A stretch of 64,000 bases of DNA, from positions 248,001 to 312,000 of the forward strand of contig NZ_JAASAH010000003.1 in the NCBI RefSeq assembly GCF_012726235.1, in the 5' to 3' direction. Both the position numbers and the translations under genes were made by a program. The notes below the pieces were generated by a model that saw nothing but the letters and a program-made list of their open reading frames with translations, had not been told where the DNA came from and made no database searches. The stretch is from Streptomyces sp. HNM0574. Its GTDB lineage: Bacteria > Actinomycetota > Actinomycetes > Streptomycetales > Streptomycetaceae. Shown here in pieces: positions 1 to 11,915 of the stretch; the first letter of the stretch is position 1, and each line of letters starts with the position of its first letter.

Positions 1-1840
1 CCTCCTCGGCGTCCTGGTAACGCCCCATCCGGCGGAGCATGTTGGCGTGCTGGAGCTCGCCCTCCAGCAGCCTCGGGTCGGTGGGCTCCAGCCGGCCGCG
101 CAGGTGCTGGACGAACTCGCGGCAGAGCCACCAGCCGGACTTGTACTCGCCGTTGGCGCGGAGGTACTCGATGCAGTTGAGCACGAAGCCGTGCACCACC
201 GGGTCGTCGGAGACGAGCGCGCCCGAGCTCTCCAGGTGCGGGACGAGCTCGTCGTACCGGCTCCAGTTGGCGCGGTCGCCCGGTTCGCGCGGGTCGGCGG
301 CGGCGAGGAGGCGGGAGGCGCTGGCGGCGCCCTGGCTGCGGGACTCCTCGCCCATGTACCGCTTGACCAGGGCCTGGTAGACGCGGTGCATGCGGACGTC
401 GCGCACGGTGAGGTTGTCGCCGTGCTCCAGGTGGTCCTCGTACTCGATGCGGATGGCGGCGGCCTCGCGGAGCTTGCGGAGCGTCGCGTTCCACTCGCTG
501 GGGTCGGCGATCAGGTCGCCCAGCGGCGCGGGCAGATCCTCGGCGCGGGCGGTGCGCAGCAGGCGTACGGGGATGGAGTCGGGGGCGAAGAAGGCGAGCA
601 GGCAGAGGAGTTCGTAGGAGACCGGGTCCTCCTCCTTCAGCCCGTTGAAGGTGACGGCCCACGCCTTGTCGAAGGTGTGCGGGTACCCGGCGTCGGTCTC
701 GACGTTGATGTCGCCCTGGCGGACCAGGCCGAGGTACTCCTGCACCTCCATCGTCGGGTTGCGGGCCAGCCAGGCCGCCGTCTGGTCGAGCAGCAGCGGG
801 AAGTCCTCCATCTCGGAGGCGAGTTCGGCGGCCTGCCGGTCGGTCAGCCGCTTGGAGCGCCGCTTGACGAAGGAGACGCTCTCGGCCCGGTCGAAGTGGG
901 TGACCTCGACCAGCTCGGCGCCGTACTGGCCCCACTCGGTGTTCCGCGTCGTCAGCAGCACGTGGCCGCGGCCCTCGGGGATGACGTCGTCGACGAGCAT
1001 CGCCGGGTCCTCGGCGCCGTCGAGGACGATCAGCCAGCGGCGGTGCGGGGCGCCGGTGCGCAGCGCCTCGTGCACGCCGCGGATCTGCTCGCCGAGCTGG
1101 GCGCCGGCGCGCAGCCCGAGCCGGTCGGCGAGCAGCGCGACCTGCTGCCTGGCCTGGGTGCGGCGCTCGGCGTTGACGTGCCAGACGATGTCGTACTCGT
1201 TGCCGAAGCGGTGCAGGTACTCGTCGGCGATCTGGGACTTGCCGACGCCCTGCACGCCGTGCAGCGCCACGAGGGAGGTGCCGTCCCCGGTGGAGTTCAG
1301 CCGCCGGTAGAGCGTCTCCAGATAGCGCTCGCGGCCGGTGAACCTGCGGTTGCGGCGGGGGGCCTGCCAGACCGCGGGCGGGGCGCTGGGGAAGCGGTGC
1401 GCGGGGGCCGCGCCGCTCTCGGTGAGGGTCTCGATGGCGGTGGTGTCGAGGCCCATGGCGGTGAACATCCGCCGCCGCGCCTCGCGTTCGTCGAGGTTGA
1501 GCAGGCTGACGGGGCGGAGGGCGGCGGCGGTGTGCGGCAGTTCCTGACTGGCGACGTTGATCACGGTGACGCGCTCCAGGTGCGGCACGACCGTGCCGGT
1601 GAGGGCGCGCGTCCACTCCTCCTCGGTGTACTCGCCGGTGCTGAAGTACCAGTCGTCCAGGAGCAGTACGAGGTGTTCGGCGCTGTCCACCAGCGAGCGG
1701 TACGCGGCGTCCAGCGGGAGGCCGCCGGGCGGGTCCCAGCGGTGCAGGCTGAAGGTGTGGTCCTGGAGGGCGAGCTGGTCGCCTATCCAGGCCGCCCAGG
1801 CACGGCCGGCGCCGGCGTAGGAGATGGTGAAGTGCTGCAT
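1..1840 (-). CDS. FxsT-like TIR / NB-ARC / TPR protein (3' end cut by window edge)
   Basis: Only the first 613 codons are present, because the frame is still open at base 1. The N-terminal ~130 residues look like a TIR-type fold (start MQHFTISYAGAGRAWAAWI, with an acidic WYFSTGEYTEEEW segment near residues 64-76). A linker follows, then an NB-ARC/STAND NTPase with the P-loop GVQGVGKS at about 195-202 and a Walker B-like LIVLDGAED near 275. The last visible part (LLEGELQHANMLRRMGRYQDAEE) starts a TPR array. This matches the FxSxx-COOH system TPR protein family, which accompanies radical SAM FxsB. The ATG start follows GAGGT by four bases. It is the last visible gene of the minus-strand block, 96 bases after the radical SAM gene. 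A signalling or effector switch triggered by the peptide or a ligand is inference. Confidence 0.85.
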   Translation of the reverse strand, partial: MQHFTISYAGAGRAWAAWIGDQLALQDHTFSLHRWDPPGGLPLDAAYRSLVDSAEHLVLLLDDWYFSTGEYTEEEWTRALTGTVVPHLERVTVINVASQELPHTAAALRPVSLLNLDEREARRRMFTAMGLDTTAIETLTESGAAPAHRFPSAPPAVWQAPRRNRRFTGRERYLETLYRRLNSTGDGTSLVALHGVQGVGKSQIADEYLHRFGNEYDIVWHVNAERRTQARQQVALLADRLGLRAGAQLGEQIRGVHEALRTGAPHRRWLIVLDGAEDPAMLVDDVIPEGRGHVLLTTRNTEWGQYGAELVEVTHFDRAESVSFVKRRSKRLTDRQAAELASEMEDFPLLLDQTAAWLARNPTMEVQEYLGLVRQGDINVETDAGYPHTFDKAWAVTFNGLKEEDPVSYELLCLLAFFAPDSIPVRLLRTARAEDLPAPLGDLIADPSEWNATLRKLREAAAIRIEYEDHLEHGDNLTVRDVRMHRVYQALVKRYMGEESRSQGAASASRLLAAADPREPGDRANWSRYDELVPHLESSGALVSDDPVVHGFVLNCIEYLRANGEYKSGWWLCREFVQHLRGRLEPTDPRLLEGELQHANMLRRMGRYQDAEE

Positions 1841-1936
1841 GTGGACCTCGAGAACGAGAAAACGCAGGGAATCACAGAGTGTTCATAGACGGTAACGCAT
1901 TCGTCGGACAGTCGGTCGTCTGTGCCCAAGTATGGT

Positions 1937-3196
1937 TCACCACAGGGGTATTGGGTGTCCGCTCACACCGTTTCCGTCTGGTCTGCTTGGTCCGGGTGGT
2001 CCGGCTTCCTCCGGCGCCGCCGCCCTTCCGAGCCGGTCCGCGACGTGCCGGATCAGGCGTTCCAGGTCGGCGCAGTACACCGAGGGGTTGCGGAAGCCGG
2101 TCGCGGGGGCGTACCGGTGCGTGGGGTTGCCGCCGCCGCACACCCGGAAGACGGGGCAGCGGCGGCAGGTGCGCGGCGGGTCGGTTCCGGCGCCGAAGTG
2201 TTCACGTACGGTCGTGAACGCGTCGTGGAAGACGTCGAATCCGGTCGCGGACGCGCCGTGGTAGGCGGAGCGGAGCGAGTCGACGCGCTCGATGCTCCCG
2301 TCCGTCTCGACGAGCACCGCGGCGCCGGGCGAGTGGCCGAGGGACTCGACGGCGCTGGGCGCCCCGAGCAGCAGCGCGAGGATCTCCTCGAACAGCCGCA
2401 CCCGGGTCTCCAGCCGCCCCGCGTCCCACCACCGGTCGAAGACCCGCACCAGCCAGTCGCCGTACGGGGTGGCCCGCGCCGTGCGCCCCGGCTCCCCCGG
2501 CGCGGGCAGCGCGGGCGGCGGGGCGTCCCAATTGGCGTGCGGGAGCAGCAGGTCGAGGGCGGGCGGCCGGAGCGCGAGCAGCGAGGTGTAGGTCTCCAGC
2601 GGGTCCTGGGCCACGTCGACGGTGCACAGGATGCCCGCGTACGCCTCCGGCACCTGCTCGGCGAGCAGCCGGGCCGCGCGGTCGACGGCGGGCCAGGAGG
2701 GGCGGCCCGCGTGGTCGACGCGGCGGTGGTTGAGCGCGGCGGTGCCGCCGTCGGCGCTGATGCCGACGCGGACGCCGGCCGCGGCGAGGCGGCGGAGCGT
2801 GGCCGCGGTGAGCAGCGTGCCGTTGGTCTGCACGAAGAAGCGCAGCGCGCAGCCGGGCGCGGCCCGGCGTACGGCGGCGCGCACGGTCTTCACGTACTCC
2901 AGGGCCGTGCCGGGGCCGCCGAGCAGCGGCTCCCCGCCGTGCAGGTCGACCCGCGCCGAGGGCAGCCGGTGCGCCGCCGCGTGCTCGGCGATCCGCTCCG
3001 CGGCCTGCCGCATGGTGCCGGGCGCGACCCGGGCCGGGCGGTCCCGCCAGGTGGTGTCGGGGCCCCGGTAGAGGTAGCAGTAGGTGCAGGCCAGGTTGCA
3101 GCGGCCGTGCACCTTCAGCACGAACTGCCGGTAGGCGGGCGGCCGTTCCTCCCCCGGTTGACGCGCGTCACGCGCCGTCGCGACGGGCTCCCTCAC
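1937..3196 (-). CDS. FxsB-like radical SAM/SPASM peptide maturase
   Basis: The 419-residue protein has the radical SAM cluster motif CNLACTYC (Cys33, Cys37, Cys40), followed by DLHGGEPLL, which is typical of peptide-modifying radical SAM enzymes. A cysteine-rich C-terminal SPASM-type region (CRRCPVFRVCGGG and a later YC) would bind auxiliary Fe-S clusters. It fits the FxsB family, whose members form three-residue cyclophane crosslinks from an aromatic residue to the residue two positions later. The GTG start at 3196 overlaps the stop codon of the small upstream gene as GTGA, so the two should be translationally coupled and the small protein is the obvious substrate. In-frame codons extend further upstream but would read across the precursor gene. 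I see no beta-hydroxylase extension at the C-terminus. The substrate assignment is inference from position. Confidence 0.88.
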   Translation of the reverse strand: MREPVATARDARQPGEERPPAYRQFVLKVHGRCNLACTYCYLYRGPDTTWRDRPARVAPGTMRQAAERIAEHAAAHRLPSARVDLHGGEPLLGGPGTALEYVKTVRAAVRRAAPGCALRFFVQTNGTLLTAATLRRLAAAGVRVGISADGGTAALNHRRVDHAGRPSWPAVDRAARLLAEQVPEAYAGILCTVDVAQDPLETYTSLLALRPPALDLLLPHANWDAPPPALPAPGEPGRTARATPYGDWLVRVFDRWWDAGRLETRVRLFEEILALLLGAPSAVESLGHSPGAAVLVETDGSIERVDSLRSAYHGASATGFDVFHDAFTTVREHFGAGTDPPRTCRRCPVFRVCGGGNPTHRYAPATGFRNPSVYCADLERLIRHVADRLGRAAAPEEAGPPGPSRPDGNGVSGHPIPLW

Positions 3197-3393
3197 GGGA
3201 CACCGTCGCGGGGCGAGTCCTCGTAGTACGCGACGACCGAACCGGCCGGGGCGGCCGCGCGGGCCCTGATGCCGGGCAATAAGGCGGCGAGCAGCGGGTG
3301 CGTGGCGCTCTCGGTGAGCAGGTCGCCGGGTGCGGGCAGCGGCACCTCGCTCCGCCCGGACCCGCCGTCCCCCGCGGCGGTGCCGGGCCGCAT
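3193..3393 (-). CDS. putative cyclophane RiPP precursor (FxsA-like, non-canonical tail)
   Basis: This 66-residue protein starts at an ATG with GGAGGGGAG about seven bases upstream. Its N-terminal two thirds (PAPGDLLTESATHPLLAAL and onward) resemble the amphipathic leader of FxsA-type precursors, and it lies directly before the radical SAM gene with a GTGA overlap. The last residues are VVAYYEDSPRDGVP. There is no FxSxx-COOH ending; Tyr-Glu-Asp instead offers an aromatic-X-Asp unit of the kind that triceptide maturases can crosslink. Codon 38 is TTA (complement of 3280-3282), a codon that in Streptomyces is read by the developmental tRNA encoded by bldA. Precursor identity rests on size, position and leader character and has not been tested. 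It could instead be a small structural partner of the neighbouring vWA protein. Confidence 0.7.
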   Translation of the reverse strand: MRPGTAAGDGGSGRSEVPLPAPGDLLTESATHPLLAALLPGIRARAAAPAGSVVAYYEDSPRDGVP

Positions 3394-3428
3394 CGGGGAG
3401 CTCCCCTCCGTCGTGCCTCGCCGCTCCG

Positions 3429-6400
3429 TCACGCCTCGCCGCCCCCAAGGACGCGGGCCCGCTCGCGGGCCGCGGTCACGTCCTCGTGCGCGGGCTCGCC
3501 GTTCCGCTCCCACAGTTGCGCTATCTGCTCGTACGCGGAGACCGCGGGGCCGCCGCCGAGCCACGCCTCGATCACCCGCGCCCGCCGCCACCGGTACTGC
3601 GCCGCCTCCGCCAGCAGTCCGGCGTCCTCGGCGGTGTGGGCCGCGTTGTGCAGGAAGCGGGACGCCTGGCTGGCGCGCCGGTAGCGGGAGTCCTCGGTGT
3701 GCTCGTCGAGCCACGATCCGGCGAGCGTCGCCCAGGCGTCGACGACGGTGCGCGGGCGTGCCTCGCGCGTCCGCGTCACACTGCTGAACATCGCCTCCGC
3801 CTCCTCCACGTCGGACCAGCGCCGGTCCGCAGGCCCGGTCAGCCGGTACCGGACGAGCAGGGCCTCGCCCAGTGCCTGCTCCACTTCCGCCATCTCCTCG
3901 GCTTCCCCGGCCTCGGCGCGGCATTCCCGCAGCAGCCGGACGGCTTCGCCGGCGCGGCCCGCGTCCCGTGCCGCGCGGGCGAGGGCCAGTTGCAGCCGGG
4001 CCTCCATGTGCCGGAGCCTGCCGTGCTGTTCGCGGGGGAGGCCGGCGCGGGCCTCGCGCAGCAGCGGCAGGACCTCGCGCAGGCTGGAGTCGTCGTCGCC
4101 GCGCCAGGAGATGCCGCCCTCGGACACCCCGTCCCGCCCGTCGGCCTCCGCCGCCGCGCCCTCCGCCCAGCCCCGGAGCGCGTACCCGCCGAGCGCGCAG
4201 ACGGCCTCGGCCCACAGGGCCGGGTCGTCGGCCTCGCGCGCGAACGCCAGGGCCGTGTCGGCCTCGTGGAGCACGGTGGCGAACACCCGGTCGGCGCGGA
4301 GGCCGCCGGCGGCCCTGGTCCTGGCCTCGGCCCGGTCCAGCCAGTAGCGGGCCGAGTGCACGAAACGGCGGCCGTCCCTGCCCATCCGCTGCCTGGCGTG
4401 CGCGATCTCCAGCCCGGCGAGCGCCTTCTCCGCGTACACGGCGGCGTGTTCGGAGGGCGCGGCACGGGAGAGCGCGAGCGCGACGCCGGCGCTCTGCCGC
4501 AGCTGGTCGGCGTCGGGCAGCGCGACGGCCGCGTCGGCGGCGTCCAGGTGGTGCAGCGCCAGGCCGTGCCGGTCGAGGGAGCCGGGGAGTTCGGGGTGCT
4601 CGGGCGGCTCGGGCATCTCCACCAGCAGCGTCGCCAGCCGCAGGTGCAGGGCCGCGCGTTCGGTGGCCACCGCGCCGGCGGCGCCGCCCGCGGTGTCCCG
4701 GGCGCCGTCCGTGGTGGGCGCGGCGCCGGCCGCGTGGAGCAGCAGCAGGTACTCGGCGTGCAGCCGGTCGGCGGGGGTGTCCTGCCAGGCGCGGCCGGTG
4801 GCGGCGGGCAGGACCCGCAGCGCGGGCCAGTCGGGCGCGGTGCGCACCTCGTCCGCGAGGCCGGTCAGCACCCGGACGAGGTCGGCGCGGACGAAGACGC
4901 CCGGGTCCTCCGGGTAGGCGTCGGTGACCCGGCGCAGCGCCTCGTACGCGTCGAGCAGGTCCTCGCGGTCGCCGGTGACGCGCCAGCGCTCCAGCAGGGC
5001 GCGGGCGAGCGATTCGTCCGTCTCCGGGCCGCCGAGGGCCCGGAAGTGCGCGATGGCGGCCTCCAGTTCCCGTGCGGTGCCGTCGTCGTGGTACCGGTTC
5101 CAGTGGTGCCGGGCGCGCTCCCGCAGGGCCTCGCGCTCGCGCGGGGCGTGGCGCGTCGGGTCGTCGTCCTCGCCCCAGCGCGGCATGAAGCGGCGCAGCA
5201 CCGCCTGGGAGACGCGCGCGAACGGCTGCCGCGCGACGCCCTCGCGCCCGGGGGCCGGGCCGCCGGACGGGGGTGTGACGGTGCCGCCGAGGTAATCGGC
5301 GGCCATCGCGGGGAAGTTGCGGGTGCGGCGTCCGAAGTGCCGCTCCACGTACGTCGAGCACTCCTTGAGGACGAGCGCCGCGTCGCCCTGGCTGAGCCGT
5401 TCCAGCAGCAGTTCGCGTACGCCGTCGTGGAACTCGTAGGCCACGCGCTCGCCCGGCCCTGTGCCGCCCTCGCGCCGCAGGAGGCCGCTGAGCAGCACCT
5501 CGGCGAGTTCCGACGGGCCGGTGTGCGGGAGCATCGCGCGCTGCACCAACTGCATGACGGGCAAGGCGAGTTCGGTGGCCGAGAGATACACGGCCAGCTG
5601 CACCGCGTCCGGTGAGGCGCTGCCCTCGAAGGCGGCGAGGAGCCGCCCGGGCTCGCGTGCGCCGCCCGCGCGGGGCGCGCGGGCGGCCGGGTGCGCGGGG
5701 CGTACCCAGCCGGCGGCGGCGTTCACGGCGACGCCCGTCACGCCCGAGACGAGGCGGGCCCAGTTGCCGAGCGCCGTCTCGGTGGGCGCGAGCACGGGCA
5801 CCGCCCAGGCGCCCGTGTCACGCGCGGCCTCCCGGGGCGCCGGGCGCACCCGGCTCGCGGGACGGAAGGCGAGCTGCCCGCCCATGCCCTGCCTGCGCCG
5901 CAGCACGCCGGGGAGCGCGGGCAGGTGCGTACGCCGCCACATGCGCTGCGGCAGCGGCTGGATGACGGCGACGGGGGACGTCTGCGCCCAGTGGTTCAGC
6001 TGGCGCTGCATCCGGCCGCTGCGCCACATCGGGCCCGCGCAGTCGCTGAGCAGCAGCGTGATCCAGTGCCCGGTGGGGTCGCGCAGCAGGCCGGCGGGCC
6101 GCAACGCCCGTCCCCGCGCGTCCACTTCGGACCCGACGGCCGGTTCCCCGGTCTCCGCGTCCTCGTGCAGGAAGTGCACCTTGACGTCGCGGAACGCGCC
6201 CGCGCCCGCGCACGCCTGGCGCAGCTCGGCGCACATCTCCTCCCACGGGACCATCGACGAGGAGACGTCCATGAGCAGCTGCACCCGTGCCGTGCGCCGC
6301 GCGCCCCGGCGGAGGACGGGCACCACCAGGCCGGTCTCGGCGGCCCGTTCGGCCGTGGCCTGCTCGTCGACGTCCTCGCGCACCGCGTGCACCGGCGGCC

Positions 6401-6851
6401 GGTACCGCTGGAGCGGACGCAGCGCCCGTTGCAGCGGCAGCAGCGAGGGCAGCGCGTTGGCGACGGGCACCCGTACGGGCACTCCCACGGGCCGGCCCGT
6501 GGGCCCGCCGGTCCGGGTGCCCCCGGCCGGGTGCGGGCCCGTGGTGTGCAGCGGGACGGTGTCGTCCCCGGGGCCGCGGCGCCGGCGCGCGGGGGCGCCG
6601 TCCACCGGGTCCTGGGGCGCCGTCCCGTCCCGGCCGGGTTTCGCCGCCGGGGTGCCCGCGCCGGTGCCGTGCGCTCCGGTGGTGTCCGCCGCGGCCGTGC
6701 CGGTGCGGTCCGGTTCCGGAGCGGGCTCGGCCAGCGGCTCGCCCGGGCTGGCCCAGCGGGCCAGCCACAGGGCGTCGGCGAGCTCCCGCGCGGAGGGCTC
6801 GGCGCCCACGTCGCGGAGTCTGCGCACCAGTTCGGGCAGTCCGTCGGACAC
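3429..6851 (-). CDS. SAV_2336-type vWA protein with long helical/TPR-like C-terminus
   Basis: The 1140-residue protein begins with the SAV_2336 N-terminal signature (LADALWLARWA near residues 25-34). A low-complexity Pro/Gly/Thr linker of about 90 residues follows, then a von Willebrand A-like domain with the MIDAS core MDVSSS (Asp195, Ser197, Ser199). The C-terminal half is rich in Ala, Arg, Leu and Glu with repeated two-helix spacing, consistent with TPR-like repeats. vWA proteins next to MoxR ATPases usually act as their partner or substrate adaptor. The ATG start lies three bases after the stop of the AAA+ gene, and the stop is 35 bases before the putative peptide precursor, so all are probably on one transcript. 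I infer that this is the adaptor of an NTP-dependent conflict or assembly module. Confidence 0.82.
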   Translation of the reverse strand: MSDGLPELVRRLRDVGAEPSARELADALWLARWASPGEPLAEPAPEPDRTGTAAADTTGAHGTGAGTPAAKPGRDGTAPQDPVDGAPARRRRGPGDDTVPLHTTGPHPAGGTRTGGPTGRPVGVPVRVPVANALPSLLPLQRALRPLQRYRPPVHAVREDVDEQATAERAAETGLVVPVLRRGARRTARVQLLMDVSSSMVPWEEMCAELRQACAGAGAFRDVKVHFLHEDAETGEPAVGSEVDARGRALRPAGLLRDPTGHWITLLLSDCAGPMWRSGRMQRQLNHWAQTSPVAVIQPLPQRMWRRTHLPALPGVLRRRQGMGGQLAFRPASRVRPAPREAARDTGAWAVPVLAPTETALGNWARLVSGVTGVAVNAAAGWVRPAHPAARAPRAGGAREPGRLLAAFEGSASPDAVQLAVYLSATELALPVMQLVQRAMLPHTGPSELAEVLLSGLLRREGGTGPGERVAYEFHDGVRELLLERLSQGDAALVLKECSTYVERHFGRRTRNFPAMAADYLGGTVTPPSGGPAPGREGVARQPFARVSQAVLRRFMPRWGEDDDPTRHAPREREALRERARHHWNRYHDDGTARELEAAIAHFRALGGPETDESLARALLERWRVTGDREDLLDAYEALRRVTDAYPEDPGVFVRADLVRVLTGLADEVRTAPDWPALRVLPAATGRAWQDTPADRLHAEYLLLLHAAGAAPTTDGARDTAGGAAGAVATERAALHLRLATLLVEMPEPPEHPELPGSLDRHGLALHHLDAADAAVALPDADQLRQSAGVALALSRAAPSEHAAVYAEKALAGLEIAHARQRMGRDGRRFVHSARYWLDRAEARTRAAGGLRADRVFATVLHEADTALAFAREADDPALWAEAVCALGGYALRGWAEGAAAEADGRDGVSEGGISWRGDDDSSLREVLPLLREARAGLPREQHGRLRHMEARLQLALARAARDAGRAGEAVRLLRECRAEAGEAEEMAEVEQALGEALLVRYRLTGPADRRWSDVEEAEAMFSSVTRTREARPRTVVDAWATLAGSWLDEHTEDSRYRRASQASRFLHNAAHTAEDAGLLAEAAQYRWRRARVIEAWLGGGPAVSAYEQIAQLWERNGEPAHEDVTAARERARVLGGGEA

Positions 6852-6854
6852 CGG

Positions 6855-7958
6855 TCACCCCGGCCTGTGGGAGGCGCCGCCCCGGTCCTCGCCACCGGGG
6901 CCGCCGGTGGCGCCGAGCGGCCGCATCATCATCTCGGCCAGGTGGCGCCTGGCGTCCGGCCCCGCGTCCTGCCCGAGCACGCTGTTCTGGGTGAGGTAGA
7001 TGGCGTTGAGCAGCTGGTCGGCGGCGTGCACCTCGCCGGGGGCGCTGGAGAGGAACTGCTCGATCGTCGCGTCGTTGTCCTCGTTCAGCTCCCCGAAGTG
7101 GGCCGTGACCATGGCCGCGAGGCGCTTCTTGTCCGGCGCCTTCAGGTCGAGGTGGATGCAGCGGCGCAGCAGCGGCAGCGGGAAGTCGCGTTCGCCGTTG
7201 CTGGTCATCACGACGACGGGGAAGGCGCGGCAGCGGACGCGGCCGCGGCGGACGTCGACGGAGGTGCCGTCGTCGGTGCGGACGCGCACGGTCTGCCGGC
7301 CGTCGTCGTCGGCGATCCGGCTGAGCTCCGGGATCTCGAACTCGCCTTCCTCCAGCACGTTCAGCAGGTCGTTCGGCAGGTCGATGTCGCTCTTGTCGAG
7401 CTCGTCGACGAGTAGCACCCGCGGCCGTTCGCCGGGCAGCAGCGCCGTCCCGAGCGGCCCGAGCCGCACGTACCGGCCGATGTCGCCCGTCTCCCCCGCT
7501 TCCCCGCCCGGCCGCGCGTTCCGGGCGGACAGCTGGGCGTCCTGGAGCCGGCCGATGGCGTCGTACTGGTACAGCCCGTCGCGGAGGGTCGTGCGGGAGA
7601 GGACGGGCCACTGGAGCACGCGGCCGAGGCCGAGTTCGTACGCGAGGGAGTGCGCGAGGGTGCTCTTGCCCGAGCCGGGGACGCCGGTGACCAGCAGCGG
7701 ACGCCGCAAGTACAGGGCGGCGTTGATGAGTTCGAGCTCGTGCTCGCTCTCGGCCCGCATCCGCTCCCGCGCCGGTCCGAGCCGCCGGACGGTGGCCGGG
7801 TCCAGCTCGGGGACCCGGGGCGCGGGCAGCACGGCGCCGGGGTCGTGCGCGTCCCCGGCGGCGCCGCCGTCGAAGGTGCGCCAGGGTGGCGGGTCCGGCA
7901 GTCGCCGGATGCCGTCGTGCGGCTCCCCCGCCCCTTTGTAGATCAGCCACTCCGTCAC
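6855..7958 (-). CDS. MoxR-like AAA+ ATPase
   Basis: The 367-residue protein has a Walker A GVPGSGKS at about residues 92-99, a Walker B VLLVDELDK at 181-189, and a sensor-like VVVMTSNGERDFPLPLLRR segment. This is the MoxR arrangement, where a ring ATPase remodels a partner together with a vWA protein. I chose the GTG at 7958 because GAGGAG sits about seven bases upstream and the protein then opens with MTEWLIYKGAGEPHDGIRRL. Upstream in-frame codons have no ribosome binding site and Arg-rich, non-native composition. It is followed three bases later by the vWA gene. The 199-base gap before it contains a candidate stress-sigma promoter, suggesting that this gene starts the ATPase-vWA-peptide transcript. 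Confidence 0.88.
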   Translation of the reverse strand: MTEWLIYKGAGEPHDGIRRLPDPPPWRTFDGGAAGDAHDPGAVLPAPRVPELDPATVRRLGPARERMRAESEHELELINAALYLRRPLLVTGVPGSGKSTLAHSLAYELGLGRVLQWPVLSRTTLRDGLYQYDAIGRLQDAQLSARNARPGGEAGETGDIGRYVRLGPLGTALLPGERPRVLLVDELDKSDIDLPNDLLNVLEEGEFEIPELSRIADDDGRQTVRVRTDDGTSVDVRRGRVRCRAFPVVVMTSNGERDFPLPLLRRCIHLDLKAPDKKRLAAMVTAHFGELNEDNDATIEQFLSSAPGEVHAADQLLNAIYLTQNSVLGQDAGPDARRHLAEMMMRPLGATGGPGGEDRGGASHRPG

Positions 7959-8028
7959 GATGGGCTCCTCATTGCGGTTCGTGTCTCCCCGGCCGGCCGG
8001 TGTCGTGCTGCTGGAGCCAACCGAGTAC

Positions 8029-8052
8029 GTACCCGGCCGCGCACCGGAAAAC
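8029..8052 (-). promoter_or_regulatory. candidate SigB/SigH-type promoter before the AAA+/vWA/RiPP block
   Basis: On the minus strand this stretch reads GTTT, 14 bases, GGGTAC. It fits the GNNT-N14-16-GGGTAY consensus described for Streptomyces general-stress sigma factors of the SigB/SigH group. It lies about 70 bases upstream of the AAA+ start codon, in the only sizeable gap of the cluster (7959-8157). A SigH-family sigma factor is encoded at 42688. The match is by eye only. Confidence 0.4.
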
Positions 8053-8157
8053 GACAATCTCCGGAAGGTTGTTCGTGTCGTGCGGCGGTGCGCCTCACGT
8101 GCGGCGCGCACCCGGCGCGCGGACCGGCGCGTGCCGCACCGCGCACCGCGCGGCCGC

Positions 8158-10386
8158 TCATGGCGAGTCCACCGTCCCCTCGGCCGCGGGCAGGGGCCGC
8201 GAGGCGTCATCGTAGAGAATCGACAGCTTCTCGGCCCACTGCACGCTGTAGTCCCGACGGTGGAACCGCGCCCTCAACACGCGCAGATGTTCGGGCAGTT
8301 GGCGCGCGGAGCCGATGCCGCGCACCGTCTTCGCCAGCCGCTCGTGCAGCGCGTCGCAGCCGGTGTCGCAGTGCCCCGAGGCGTGCGGCGAGGACTGCCA
8401 CAGGACGACGCCGTGCCCGTGCCGCAACGCCAGCTCCATGCCCGCGCGCCCCGTCTCGTCCCCGGCCGGGCGGCACAGCGCCGGTACGGTGCCGGGCGCG
8501 GCGGCGGCCAACTGCTCCTCGCGCAGCGGGAGTCCGTGCGGCGGGACGCGCACCGTCTCCAGCCCCGTGACGTCCCCGAGCGCCGCCCAGCGCCCGGCCC
8601 ACACGTCCGCCTCCGGGGACGGGTCCTCGCCCGCGCCCTCCTTGCGGTCCAGCGCCCGGACGACGATCTGGCGCTGCGCGCCGAGCGGCAGGTACGCCGG
8701 GTCGTTCCCGTCGAGCGAGCCGGCGGATTCGTGCAGCATCCAGCGCTGTACCCCGAGGTCGAAGTGCTCCAGCGGCAGGGCGACTTCGAGCGGCGCCTTG
8801 CGCCGCTCGGTGTCCACGGTGGCGAACAGCCGCAGCAGCGGCCGCCGCAGGGACGGCACCAGTTCCTCGTACGGGATGCCGCCGGGCGGCTCGATGTGCT
8901 CGTCGTACCCGCCGGGCTCGTCCCCGACCTGCACCCGCAGCGAGGCGAAGAACGCGGGCCGCTCCGTCCACAGCACGGGCTCGATCTCCAGCACGACGGT
9001 GGGCCCCTCGTCGCCCGGGTGCGTGCCGGAGCAGACCAGCAGCGGGTCCGTCGCCTTCTCCCGCTCGCCGGGCGAGGGCTGCGCCGGAATGTACGGGGTG
9101 CCGGAGGTGTGCGCGGGCGGCGCGTCCGTGAGCTGCGGCGGCAGGGCCAGAGTGAGCACCTGCGCGACCTGGTCGACGGGCATTTCCGCGACCCGCGACG
9201 CCACCCACTCCTCGACGGCCTGGACGGCCCGGACCACGTCCGCGTACCCGAGGCCCCCGGTGTCCCCGGCCTCAGCCGCGTGCGCCGCCGCGAGCGCGGC
9301 GAGCCGCGCGTACCGCAGGAAGGGCAGCGAGGTGTTGGAGAAGTTGTCCCGGTAGAGGCAGCCGTGCCCGTCCCGGAGGGTGCGCAGACGCGGCGGCAGC
9401 GAGCCGAGGCTGCCGTACACCGCCTCGCTCACCAGCTGCTTCACCCGCACCGGGCCGCCCGGCTCGGGCAGCCTGCTGAGCAGCCCGAGCAGCCGCAGCC
9501 GGTCCGTGGGCGACCAGTGCCCGGCCGCCGTCGCCGCCCCGCCGGGCGCGGCGGCCGCGACCGCGTGCTCGGGGGACGCCGCCTGCGTACGGTGCCAGCC
9601 CTCGCCGGGGCCTCCGGCACCGAAGCCGTAGGAACCGGCGGGCGGGACGCCGGGGCGGACCGCCGCCTCGTGCCAGCGGTCGTGCAGCCGCATCAGCTCG
9701 ACGTACGGGTCGGTGCCCAGCACCGCCTCGGGGCAGACGGCTTCGGCCGTCAGATCGCCCAGCAGCGAGGTGCGGACGGCCAGCCCGCCCTCCTTGATGT
9801 CACCGGAGCCGAACGTGCTGTTCCGCTTCACCAGCCCGACGACCACGTTGCTGTGCAGGTCGACGACCGGCCCGCCCGAGACCCCCGGCGGCACCTCGCT
9901 GTCCGGGGCGAAGCGCAGCCCGTACAGCCCGTCCTTGCCGCTGTAGGCGAAGACCGAGTCCCAGCCGTGCGGGGTGCCGTCCTTCTCGTACCAGCCGTAC
10001 GCCTTCAACCGGCCCTTCGGCGTCTCCCGCCGGTCCGACAGCCAGACGCACGGGTGCGCCGGCTCGGGCTCCAGCAGCCGGACGAGGGCGATGTCGCACT
10101 CCTCGGGCACCGCGTCGTACGCGAACACCCCGCGCGGCCAGTACCCGAGCCGGGCCCGCACCGTGCGGGTCTGCCCGTACGCCTCCGGCAGCACCACGTC
10201 GAACGGCTCCGTCAGCCGTTCCGGAGCGCCAAGACCCGCGCGCACCACGTGCGCCGCGGTCAGCGCCCAGCCCGGCGCGACCAGGAAACCCGAGCCCCAG
10301 AACGTGCCGTCGGCGCCGTGCAGGCGGACCGTCGCGGGCTGGACGAGCGTGTCCAGCCGGCCGACGTCCGCCCCCGCGTCAGGCAT
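8158..10386 (-). CDS. trypsin-like serine protease with VMAP-type C-terminal region
   Basis: The N-terminal ~200 residues form a chymotrypsin-fold protease with a complete apparent triad: His46 in TAAHVV, Asp98 in ECDIALV, and Ser170 in PPGVSGGPV. No signal peptide is present, so it should act in the cytoplasm. The remaining ~540 residues contain a middle region and a C-terminal domain ending in a helical segment, as in the trypsin-linked VMAP (vWA-MoxR-associated protein) proteins of NTP-dependent conflict systems. It overlaps the preceding CU044_2847-type gene by eight bases, so these two are co-translated. Downstream, 199 bases separate it from the MoxR gene. A protease released by the ATPase/vWA switch is the model described for such systems. 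Its role here is inferred. Confidence 0.82.
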   Translation of the reverse strand: MPDAGADVGRLDTLVQPATVRLHGADGTFWGSGFLVAPGWALTAAHVVRAGLGAPERLTEPFDVVLPEAYGQTRTVRARLGYWPRGVFAYDAVPEECDIALVRLLEPEPAHPCVWLSDRRETPKGRLKAYGWYEKDGTPHGWDSVFAYSGKDGLYGLRFAPDSEVPPGVSGGPVVDLHSNVVVGLVKRNSTFGSGDIKEGGLAVRTSLLGDLTAEAVCPEAVLGTDPYVELMRLHDRWHEAAVRPGVPPAGSYGFGAGGPGEGWHRTQAASPEHAVAAAAPGGAATAAGHWSPTDRLRLLGLLSRLPEPGGPVRVKQLVSEAVYGSLGSLPPRLRTLRDGHGCLYRDNFSNTSLPFLRYARLAALAAAHAAEAGDTGGLGYADVVRAVQAVEEWVASRVAEMPVDQVAQVLTLALPPQLTDAPPAHTSGTPYIPAQPSPGEREKATDPLLVCSGTHPGDEGPTVVLEIEPVLWTERPAFFASLRVQVGDEPGGYDEHIEPPGGIPYEELVPSLRRPLLRLFATVDTERRKAPLEVALPLEHFDLGVQRWMLHESAGSLDGNDPAYLPLGAQRQIVVRALDRKEGAGEDPSPEADVWAGRWAALGDVTGLETVRVPPHGLPLREEQLAAAAPGTVPALCRPAGDETGRAGMELALRHGHGVVLWQSSPHASGHCDTGCDALHERLAKTVRGIGSARQLPEHLRVLRARFHRRDYSVQWAEKLSILYDDASRPLPAAEGTVDSP

Positions 10387-10828
10387 CAGCCGGGCCTCCG
10401 GGCGCCGGCACCGTGGGCGGGCTCCCGTGGGCGCCGCCCGCGCTGTCCCGGGAGTCCGTGCGCCCGCGCTCCTCCGAACGCCAGGTGAGCGTCACGGACA
10501 GTGCGGCCTTCGCCTCGCCCTCGGCCACGAAGGCGACCGCCTTGCCGGACTTCGCGGCCAGTTCGAGACCGAAGGTGACGGCGACCTCGTCGGGACCGGC
10601 CTCGCGGGCCGCGTCCACCACGTTCCGGGCGACGCGGCGCACGACCTCGCCCACGTCCCCCGCGCGGGAGGCCACCGAGTCCAGCGCGCCGACGTCCTGG
10701 CCCTGGCCGTAGCCCGCGGGGCGCCGCTGGACCGCCAGGTCCTCCGCGTCCAGCGTCTCGACCCTGGCCAGCACCACGTCGCCGTTCCCGAGATCGATCT
10801 CCCGCACCCGGTATGCCACGTCCAGCAC
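10379..10828 (-). CDS. CU044_2847 family protein
   Basis: The 149-residue protein starts at GTG (MLDVAYRVREIDLGNGDVVL). It has a central helical part with an AVTFGLELAAKSGKAVAF segment and a strand-rich end (AALSVTLTW), followed by a disordered Gly/Pro/Ser tail. This is the signature of a small actinobacterial family found beside trypsin-like VMAP proteins, to which it is thought to be functionally linked. The biochemical role is unknown. Its last eight bases overlap the protease start, so it is the first gene of the minus-strand cluster. About 160 bases separate its start from the divergent DUF6104-like gene, enough for a promoter. Confidence 0.72.
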   Translation of the reverse strand: MLDVAYRVREIDLGNGDVVLARVETLDAEDLAVQRRPAGYGQGQDVGALDSVASRAGDVGEVVRRVARNVVDAAREAGPDEVAVTFGLELAAKSGKAVAFVAEGEAKAALSVTLTWRSEERGRTDSRDSAGGAHGSPPTVPAPGGPADA

Positions 10829-11375: not shown

Positions 11376-11915
11376 ATGCCCCCGGTCTTCGGCCACGGAC
11401 GGCTCCGCCTCTACCTGCTCAAGCTGCTCGACGAGGCGCCCCGGCACGGCTACGAGGTGATCCGGCTGCTGGAGGAGCGCTTCCGCGGCCGGTACGCGCC
11501 CTCCGCCGGAACCGTCTACCCGCGCCTGGCCAAGCTGGAGTCCGAGGACCTCGTCCGGCACACCACCGAGGGCGGCCGCAAGGTCTACGCGATCACCGCG
11601 GCCGGACGCCGCGAACTCGCCGCCCGGCAGGCCGAACTGGCCGAGCTGGAGGCCGAGATCCACCGCTCCCTGGACGCCCTCGCCACCGAGGAGCCCCGCC
11701 CGGGCGACGACCGGCACGGCATGCCCCGGCTCGCCCGCGACACCGCACCTCTCCGCGAACTCGAACGCCTCCTGGACCACTTCCGCGACGAGATCCGCGA
11801 CACCGCCCGCGACCACGGCCTCACCCCCACCCGCCTCACCCGGACCCGCACCCACCTCACCACCACAGCCACCCACCTCACGGCCCTGCTGCGGGGGGAG
11901 GGGGAGGAGGGGTGA
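11376..11915 (+). CDS. PadR family transcriptional regulator
   Basis: The 179-residue protein begins with a winged helix typical of PadR (LLKLLDEAPRHGYEVIRLL, then PSAGTVYPRLAKLESEDLV and the wing GGRKVYAIT). It continues into a long C-terminal helical dimerisation region with an Arg/Thr-rich end. PadR regulators repress genes for detoxification, efflux or metabolism when no ligand is bound. The ATG at 11376 follows the AAGGA ribosome binding site. An inverted repeat with ACAT/ATGT elements lies upstream and may be its own operator. No transporter is adjacent, so the target is unclear. It ends 49 bases before the toxin-antitoxin operon. Confidence 0.88.
   Translation: MPPVFGHGRLRLYLLKLLDEAPRHGYEVIRLLEERFRGRYAPSAGTVYPRLAKLESEDLVRHTTEGGRKVYAITAAGRRELAARQAELAELEAEIHRSLDALATEEPRPGDDRHGMPRLARDTAPLRELERLLDHFRDEIRDTARDHGLTPTRLTRTRTHLTTTATHLTALLRGEGEEG

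What the first reader, a model, noticed from the sequence alone, without database searches (positions are those of the whole stretch)
1..10828. VMAP-type conflict module joined to a cyclophane RiPP cassette and a TIR/NB-ARC/TPR protein
Seven minus-strand genes stand in order: CU044_2847-type, trypsin-like VMAP protease, MoxR ATPase, vWA/SAV_2336 protein, a 66-residue peptide, FxsB-like radical SAM, and FxsT-like TIR/NB-ARC/TPR. Most junctions overlap or lie within 35 bases. The first five fit published NTP-dependent conflict systems (vWA-MoxR-associated proteins). The peptide and radical SAM pair belongs to RiPP biology. A modified peptide that signals to, or is released by, the protease/ATPase switch, with the TIR protein as effector, would be a new mode of immunity or cell-death control. 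The idea is inference; the gene order is seen.
Basis: partly seen in the sequence, partly recalled or inferred. Interest (0 to 1): 0.85.

Follow-up and report, generated by a model that had tools for sequence, protein, structure and literature searches.

The report
Swappable peptide-and-receptor defence locus
In Streptomyces-type bacteria a seven-gene set, holding a small peptide, an enzyme predicted to tie a ring into its tail and an immune-type receptor, sits beside the same housekeeping gene in many species and comes there in a few very different versions that were likely swapped between species as a whole, so it is likely a defence or self-recognition system whose signal would be the modified peptide.

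Summary
The gene order is real; FxsT runs 1,121 bases past the window edge. The association is not new: Kaur et al. 2020 described VMAP/MoxR/vWA systems with a peptide, radical SAM and a separate TIR/AP-ATPase/TPR gene, and proposed the peptide as toxin or signal.

What I add: (1) this copy is a Y-x-D-tail variant without the HExxH gene that Kaur et al. call core. Among loci with VMAP core, peptide and FxsT, HExxH is present in 39 of 39 with F-x-S/N tails and 0 of 39 with Y/F-x-D tails. (2) The module occupies one chromosomal site, between kgd (2-oxoglutarate dehydrogenase) and PadR/DUF4097 genes; of 60 same-genus genomes 32 carry a module there and 18 have the site empty. (3) Three divergent haplotypes (radical SAM only; radical SAM + HExxH; HExxH only) share that site. 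The haplotype changes 23 times on the kgd tree of 77 loci and 10 times on rpoB of 30 genomes, but only twice, the minimum, on trypsin, VMAP-C, MoxR, vWA and FxsT trees. VMAP and RiPP blocks are thus one hereditary unit, likely exchanged as a block. The mechanism (peptide as intracellular ligand of the TIR/NB-ARC receptor) remains inference.

The parts
10379..10828 (-). Trypco1 / CU044_2847 family protein (149 aa)
   Evidence: NF041216 70.5 bits (cut-off 23), PF19493 64.3 bits
8158..10386 (-). VMAP: trypsin-like protease + VMAP-C (742 aa); catalytic His/Asp/Ser present
   Evidence: PF13365 44.5 bits, PF20028 107 bits; triad columns conserved across loci
6855..7958 (-). MoxR-type AAA+ ATPase (367 aa) with the N-terminal WxhapG and PsWRxa motifs
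   Evidence: AAA_5 PF07728 29.9 bits; sequence; Walker A/B, sensor 1 and Arg conserved
3429..6851 (-). vWA / SAV_2336 protein (1140 aa), MIDAS DVSSS, long C-terminal region without a Pfam match
   Evidence: NF041121 428.4 bits (cut-off 200)
3193..3432 (-). precursor peptide; leader ...HPLL..., tail ...VVAYYEDSPRDGVP (Y-x-D)
   Evidence: NF041709 38.3 bits, below its cut-off of 55; related peptides at the same place in other loci
1937..3196 (-). FxsB-family radical SAM/SPASM enzyme (419 aa)
   Evidence: TIGR04269 377.3 bits (cut-off 370); nearest solved sequence ChlB 9gm3, E 2.2e-65; the 7 cysteines checked are conserved in 79 of 79 rows
1..1840 (-). FxsT: TIR / NB-ARC / TPR receptor-like protein, cut by the window edge (986 aa in all)
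11376..11915 (+). PadR regulator: flank of the site on the Trypco1 side (not part of the module)
   Evidence: PF03551 73.1 bits; same family flanks the site in other loci

Best explanation
The seven genes are inherited as one unit at a fixed chromosomal site and were likely exchanged between species as a block; FxsB is predicted to cross-link Tyr and Asp in the tail of the small peptide, and this modified tail would likely act inside the cell as the ligand that couples a MoxR/vWA/VMAP-protease switch to the TIR/NB-ARC/TPR receptor FxsT, which would then stop growth or kill the cell on infection. Shown here: gene content, co-inheritance, fixed site, haplotypes, conserved active sites. Predicted from family knowledge: the Tyr-Asp cyclophane (YxdB-type chemistry). 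Inferred: block exchange by recombination in the flanks (old shared polymorphism with losses is the alternative), an intracellular ligand (none of the seven genes is an exporter), gating by MoxR/vWA and the protease, FxsT as receptor, an anti-invader output. This copy has no HExxH enzyme, so if the tail is cut off, the VMAP protease or a host protease would do it.
For: Core, peptide, FxsB and FxsT together in 39 Y/F-x-D-tail and 39 F-x-S/N-tail loci (L174 dropped, L123 and L184 added to Y-x-D by eye). kgd is convergent with FxsT in 66 of 66 of these stretches that reach it, 64-4,106 bp away. Haplotype label changes in 77 loci: kgd 23; trypsin, VMAP-C, MoxR, vWA and FxsT 2 each (minimum 2 for three states); FxsB 1 in 66 loci. 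Well-supported kgd branches alone force 11 (Y-x-D), 11 (F-x-S) and 7 (HExxH-only) changes, each group counted alone. rpoB control: 10 changes in 30 genomes, IQ-TREE; sisters G019 (Y-x-D) and G057 (F-x-S) at 100/100. DNA of that pair: 91% on the kgd side, 79-87% on the other side, inside the module only patches at 65-74%. Within one haplotype, distances of VMAP-C, MoxR, vWA, FxsB and FxsT correlate after removing kgd distance (partial r 0.83-0.95 in 35 Y-x-D, 0.66-0.89 in 29 F-x-S loci; 0 of 499 permutations as high for each pair). Protease, ATPase, rSAM and NB-ARC active-site residues near-invariant. Y-x-D cross-linking shown for YxdB (review PMC11002830, passages).
Against: No experiment. PADLOC matches are weak or partial (best is a viperin model to the radical SAM core, 38 bits), so no catalogued defence system. 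16 of 42 non-fused FxsB loci of the genome panel have no VMAP core nearby, and a Y-x-D peptide/FxsB pair occurs without core or FxsT (L091); one kgd site (L234, G017) has a core without FxsT or peptide. The TIR Glu is lost in many Y-x-D relatives. The 199-bp VMAP/MoxR gap leaves room for two transcripts. The peptide scores below the NF041709 cut-off. The label is still clustered on kgd and rpoB (below shuffled means of 32.4 and 13.9), so inheritance is partly vertical. The cyclophane in this very peptide is unproven.
Confidence: 0.42

Rival explanations
1. The modified peptide is itself the toxin or antibiotic-like effector, and FxsT and the VMAP core only control its release.
For: Kaur et al. 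propose 'peptide toxin or signal'; other rSAM-cross-linked peptides such as darobactin and dynobactin are antibiotics (abstract, passage).
Against: None of the seven genes is an exporter; leader and tail motif are largely conserved within each haplotype rather than hypervariable; FxsT is present in every FxsB locus that has at least three core profiles and full flanks.
Confidence: 0.15
2. An allorecognition or kin-discrimination locus: the haplotype-specific peptide marks self, and a mismatch after hyphal contact, conjugation or fusion triggers FxsT.
For: Three divergent haplotypes plus empty sites at one place, scattered over the species tree; tight linkage of signal, modifying enzymes and receptor.
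Against: Phage-driven turnover would give the same pattern; within-haplotype tails are largely conserved, so there would be few specificities; no secretion part among the seven genes.
Confidence: 0.15
3. A developmental or physiological signalling module of Streptomyces (for example sensing damage during sporulation), not a conflict system.
For: Fixed site beside a housekeeping gene; FxsB relatives on plasmids rare (5 of 72,556 records at E 1e-40, all under 50% identity) and no phage match at E 1e-30.
Against: Site empty in 18 of 60 same-genus genomes; fast-diverging alternative haplotypes, unusual for a developmental gene.
Confidence: 0.2
4. Two independent systems that merely sit side by side.
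For: FxsB/peptide pairs without the VMAP core exist (L091; 16 of 42 non-fused FxsB loci lack the core).
Against: No recombinant between core and RiPP haplotype in 77 loci; high partial correlations; 4-bp overlap of peptide and FxsB genes, and of vWA and peptide if the GTG start is used.
Confidence: 0.03

Closest known systems
VMAP-ternary system with FxSxx-type peptide-processing module (Kaur et al. 2020, PMC7159879)
   Same: Trypsin-VMAP with Trypco neighbour, MoxR, vWA, small peptide, radical SAM/SPASM and a separate downstream TIR/AP-ATPase/TPR gene
   Different: Tail is Y-x-D, not FxSxx; no HExxH gene, which that paper calls part of the core of the peptide-processing system; its main text holds neither 'oxoglutarate' nor 'synten' and the parts I read report no fixed site or alternative haplotypes
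YxD triceptide family (YxdB; NCBIfam NF041709)
   Same: Tail with Tyr-x-Asp and a FxsB-like radical SAM enzyme next to the peptide; a Y-x-D relative of this locus exceeds the NF041709 cut-off (L093, 63.5 bits)
   Different: Own peptide is below the cut-off (38.3 versus 55 bits); here the pair sits inside a VMAP/TIR module
ChlB-type fused radical SAM + alphaKG-HExxH systems
   Same: FxsB is related (ChlB 9gm3, E 2.2e-65); fused FxsB-HExxH loci in relatives also carry an FxsT gene within 8 kb (18 of 19 loci)
   Different: HExxH domain is absent here; a VMAP core was found within about 10 kb of only 1 of 19 fused loci examined (L116)
Bacterial and plant TIR-NB-ARC (NLR-like) receptors
   Different: Linked to a modified-peptide cassette and a MoxR/vWA machine; TIR Glu often lost in the Y-x-D group

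Membership tests
VMAP-ternary conflict system | Gene order VMAP - MoxR - vWA | tested here: met
VMAP-ternary conflict system | VMAP-C domain | tested here: met
   PF20028 107 bits, cut-off 27
VMAP-ternary conflict system | MoxR N-terminal motifs WxhapG and PsWRxa (defined in PMC7159879 section 9) | tested here: met
   WLIYKG and PPWRTF in the sequence, by eye
VMAP-ternary conflict system | Trypco1 or Trypco2 beside a trypsin-type VMAP | tested here: met
   PF19493 and PF13365
VMAP-ternary conflict system | vWA C-terminal region made of TPRs in the FxSxx type | tested here: inconclusive
   no Pfam match in the tail; the structure job failed and new jobs were closed
VMAP FxSxx-type peptide-processing subtype | FxSxx C-terminal motif | tested here: not met
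   tail AYYEDSPRDGVP; of NCBIfam only NF041709 matched
VMAP FxSxx-type peptide-processing subtype | HExxH (zincin-like) gene as core | tested here: not met
   96 bp between FxsB and FxsT, no HExxH profile hit; next gene after FxsT is kgd
VMAP FxSxx-type peptide-processing subtype | Separate downstream TIR/AP-ATPase/TPR gene | tested here: met
   NF040586 732.9 bits, TIR_2 and NB-ARC
FxsB family (TIGR04269) | score over the curated cut-off of 370 | tested here: met
   377.3 bits
YxD-tail cyclophane RiPP (NF041709) | score over the curated cut-off of 55 | tested here: not met
   38.3 bits; tail motif present
YxD-tail cyclophane RiPP | C3(Tyr)-Cbeta(Asp) cross-link | not testable with these tools
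   needs mass spectrometry and NMR
NADase TIR | catalytic Glu | tested here: inconclusive
   candidate Glu in EEEW present here; placement rests on motif recall; Glu in 15 of 40 Y-x-D rows
Anti-phage defence system | protection against phage | not testable with these tools
   only weak or partial PADLOC matches

The most novel reading that the evidence does not exclude
One chromosomal site (kgd-PadR) in Streptomyces is a bacterial counterpart of a polymorphic incompatibility or immune locus: a whole signal-enzyme-receptor haplotype, defined by which chemistry is put on the tail of a shared-leader peptide (cyclophane only, cyclophane + hydroxylation, or HExxH modification only), is kept as a few ancient alleles and swapped as a block by recombination in the flanks, with a TIR/NB-ARC receptor matched to its own modified peptide.
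Probability: 0.25. Interest if true: 0.85.

Novelty: new variant of a known kind. Interest (0 to 1): 0.62.

Why it matters
The VMAP/peptide systems were predicted in 2020, and I found no experimental test of them in the library searched. A fixed site with empty, Y-x-D, F-x-S and HExxH-only alleles in related species gives natural comparisons: alleles can be deleted or exchanged at one address, and each gene tested for its dependence on the peptide chemistry. The Y-x-D haplotype also shows that the HExxH enzyme is dispensable to the architecture, which argues against the published role of that gene as the general peptide-releasing protease and points to the VMAP protease or a host protease.

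Tried and rejected
Close relatives of the own peptide: the genome-contig scan found none, and the 5.8-billion-protein search found 2 proteins, one of them the window's own, so I went through FxsB instead. Phages: no FxsB match at E 1e-30. Plasmids: 5 of 72,556 records, under 50% identity. Trypsin-like cleavage of the peptide: the position 6 before the catalytic Ser (taken as the S1 pocket by recall) is not conserved, so I make no specificity claim. A functional link of the HExxH enzyme (alphaKG-dependent) to the neighbouring 2-oxoglutarate dehydrogenase gene was considered and rejected, because the HExxH-less haplotype has the same neighbour. The first rpoB tree used wrong (antisense) frames in some rows; replaced, same count of 10. 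L174 was misassigned as Y-x-D (its core belongs to another module and it is the one such locus with an HExxH hit): not in the 77-locus trees and dropped from the 39, but inside the 40. One search counted L123 and L184 with the F-x-S loci (regular expression too narrow), so I give the kgd counts instead. L071 (tail EYTQS, with HExxH) and L116 were left out of the labels; L070, L073 and L087 (relatives outside the genus) have no HExxH and no peptide-profile hit. Two F-tail loci without HExxH (L163, L166) end at a contig edge before that place and were not counted. Of 90 labelled loci, 13 (5 Y-x-D with L174, 8 F-x-S) were left out of the trees because the fetched stretch held too little kgd. Trees are FastTree with long-branch warnings; on FxsT and trypsin trees F-x-S falls in two pieces with respect to the HExxH-only group, still 2 changes in all, and VMAP-C support for Y-x-D is only 70. 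Tail classes were assigned by regular expressions written after seeing the tails. Literature searched; no listed paper appeared to report the kgd site or alternative haplotypes, but only three papers were opened, the library lacks most subscription papers, and Kaur's source data were not read.

Full report
WHAT IS THERE. The window's first 10.8 kb hold seven minus-strand genes: Trypco1/CU044_2847, a trypsin + VMAP-C protein, a MoxR ATPase, a vWA/SAV_2336 protein, a small peptide, a FxsB-family radical SAM/SPASM enzyme and a TIR/NB-ARC/TPR protein (FxsT). FxsT is cut by the window; on the contig it is 986 aa long and scores 732.9 bits to NF040586. The next gene, 228 bp on and convergent, is the 1,295-aa 2-oxoglutarate dehydrogenase kgd (NF008907, 2,101.9 bits). 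On the other side stands a PadR regulator (11376-11915 +). The peptide ends ...VVAYYEDSPRDGVP: Y-x-D, not FxSxx. It scores 38.3 bits to the NCBIfam model of YxD-tail cyclophane peptides, below the cut-off of 55.

WHAT IS ALREADY KNOWN. Kaur et al. 2020 (PMC7159879; I read the abstract, section 24, the first parts of sections 9 and 35, and passages; [quoted passage not shown] Its core is given as a zincin-like HExxH gene plus a small peptide of FxSxx, RxD, acidic or FtsH-associated type. The FxSxx type has a radical SAM/SPASM gene and a separate downstream TIR/AP-ATPase/TPR gene, and the peptide is proposed as toxin or signal. Some HExxH proteins are now known as alphaKG-dependent hydroxylases rather than peptidases, although one such enzyme also cleaves the backbone (abstract and passages of PMC12636437); NCBIfam TIGR04267 carries the hydroxylase name. 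YxdB makes a C3(Tyr)-Cbeta(Asp) bond (review PMC11002830, passages). I did not see the primary papers behind the review statements.

HOW COMMON, AND THE Y-x-D VARIANT. FxsB was sought in 100 related genomes. I fetched 41 loci of the non-fused kind and 19 of the kind fused to HExxH, besides the window's own; both are parts of longer lists. Profiles built from the window's proteins were run on these and on 80 further loci, 78 of them titled Streptomyces, found with a Y-x-D FxsB alignment and capped at the best 80. Of the 42 non-fused panel loci, own included, 23 have at least three of the five core profiles (counting trypsin and VMAP-C apart) upstream, one more has MoxR and vWA, two are cut by contig ends and 16 lack the core. 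Of 19 fused loci, one has a core nearby (L116). Among loci with core, peptide and FxsT, an HExxH domain lies between FxsB and FxsT (separate gene, fused in L151) in 39 of 39 with F-x-S/N-type tails (LWGFNNAF and the like) and in 0 of 39 with Y/F-x-D-type tails (VAHYEDAP, VAYYEDSP and the like; own included; two of these have a short flank) (L174 dropped, L123 and L184 added by eye). In those 39 the distance from the FxsB stop to the FxsT match is 67-246 bp, so no gene fits there. Both types share a leader with an HPVL-like motif in most members.

ONE SITE, SEVERAL ALLELES. kgd is read beside FxsT in 35 of the 40 loci labelled Y-x-D and 31 of 39 labelled F-x-S (the rest end too early), always convergent, 64-4,106 bp from the FxsT stop. 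I located kgd in the panel and examined its 3' side in the 60 same-genus genomes that have one (G001 has none). State of the site: Y-x-D 7; both enzymes 14 (G059 with an odd tail; in G010 and G014 part of the core is masked or cut); HExxH-only 11; FxsT fragment at a contig end 2; core without peptide or FxsT 1; empty 18 (the DUF4097 family 0.4-2.9 kb from kgd); other or unclear 7. In 19 of the 21 radical-SAM modules FxsT ends within 4.2 kb of kgd; in G014 and G034 about 8 and 12 kb away (positions). In 10 of 11 HExxH-only loci the DUF4097 flank lies 12-14 kb from kgd, i.e. the module fills the gap (17.9 kb in the eleventh); in a genome of another family it is 0.3 kb from kgd. HExxH-only peptides have the same kind of leader and W-containing tails.

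INHERITED AND PROBABLY EXCHANGED AS A BLOCK. I labelled loci by enzyme content: radical SAM only, both, or HExxH only. For the 77 loci (of 90 labelled) with enough kgd sequence, the label needs 23 changes on the kgd tree (shuffled mean 32.4; well-supported branches alone force 11, 11 and 7 for the three groups counted singly). It needs only 2, the minimum for three states, on the trypsin, VMAP-C, MoxR, vWA and FxsT trees, and 1 on the FxsB tree of 66. An independent species marker, rpoB, needs 10 in 30 genomes (shuffled mean 13.9; IQ-TREE); G019 (Y-x-D) and G057 (F-x-S) are sisters there at 100/100. In that pair the kgd-side flank is 91% identical over 4.9 kb and the other flank 79-87%, while inside the module only patches of 65-74% DNA identity align; kgd is 93% but FxsT 39% identical as protein. 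kgd averages 88-89% identity whether loci share a haplotype or not, whereas module proteins average 29-65% between and 43-82% within haplotypes. Within each radical-SAM haplotype the distances among the five proteins stay correlated after regression on kgd distance (0 of 499 permutations as high for every pair). So the two 'blocks' of the finding are one hereditary unit, and no recombinant between them was seen. Exchange by recombination in the flanks is the simplest reading; an old polymorphism kept through speciation, with losses, is not excluded.

LIMITS. FastTree trees with long branches; tail classes set after seeing the data; start codons uncertain; the window's species is inferred (Streptomyces-like) from its relatives and not named by any search; the 80 named loci were drawn by FxsB similarity, so only the kgd-site survey is unbiased with respect to the module; nothing outside the actinomycete relatives was surveyed.

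Noticed in passing
FxsT TIR domain, Y-x-D loci such as L136, L140, L177, L195: A sub-branch of the Y-x-D group (VTVVFAGQSE...) has lost the candidate catalytic Glu (Ala in 21 of 40 Y-x-D rows); these TIR domains may be scaffolds, not enzymes.
   Followed up: partly
L224, L232, L233, L236, L237, L239, L245, L247, L248, L249, L253: HExxH-only haplotype at the same kgd site: shared-leader peptide with a W-containing tail, no radical SAM; the vWA MIDAS DxSxS is changed in most of the 11 rows (8 Gly at the first, 8 Ala at the second Ser position).
   Followed up: partly
L091:9386-10860: A Y-x-D peptide/FxsB pair without VMAP core or FxsT within about 9 kb, next to a penicillin-acyltransferase-like (PF03417) gene: the pair also lives in another setting.
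   Followed up: partly
L139: Precursor with two tandem tail motifs (GAYFSDAP...GAYFADAP).
   Followed up: no
L070, L073, L087: Relatives outside the genus carry the core + FxsB + FxsT without HExxH; candidate peptides end VVGWSSCLLPPPPD.. or LAYHDLTSAG: probably further tail types.
   Followed up: partly
L151: A F-x-S-type module in which FxsB and HExxH lie in one 914-aa frame.
   Followed up: no
L231, L250 (kgd site of G012, G046): An HExxH gene beside kgd without a VMAP core; content of the 13-18 kb between the flanks not resolved.
   Followed up: no
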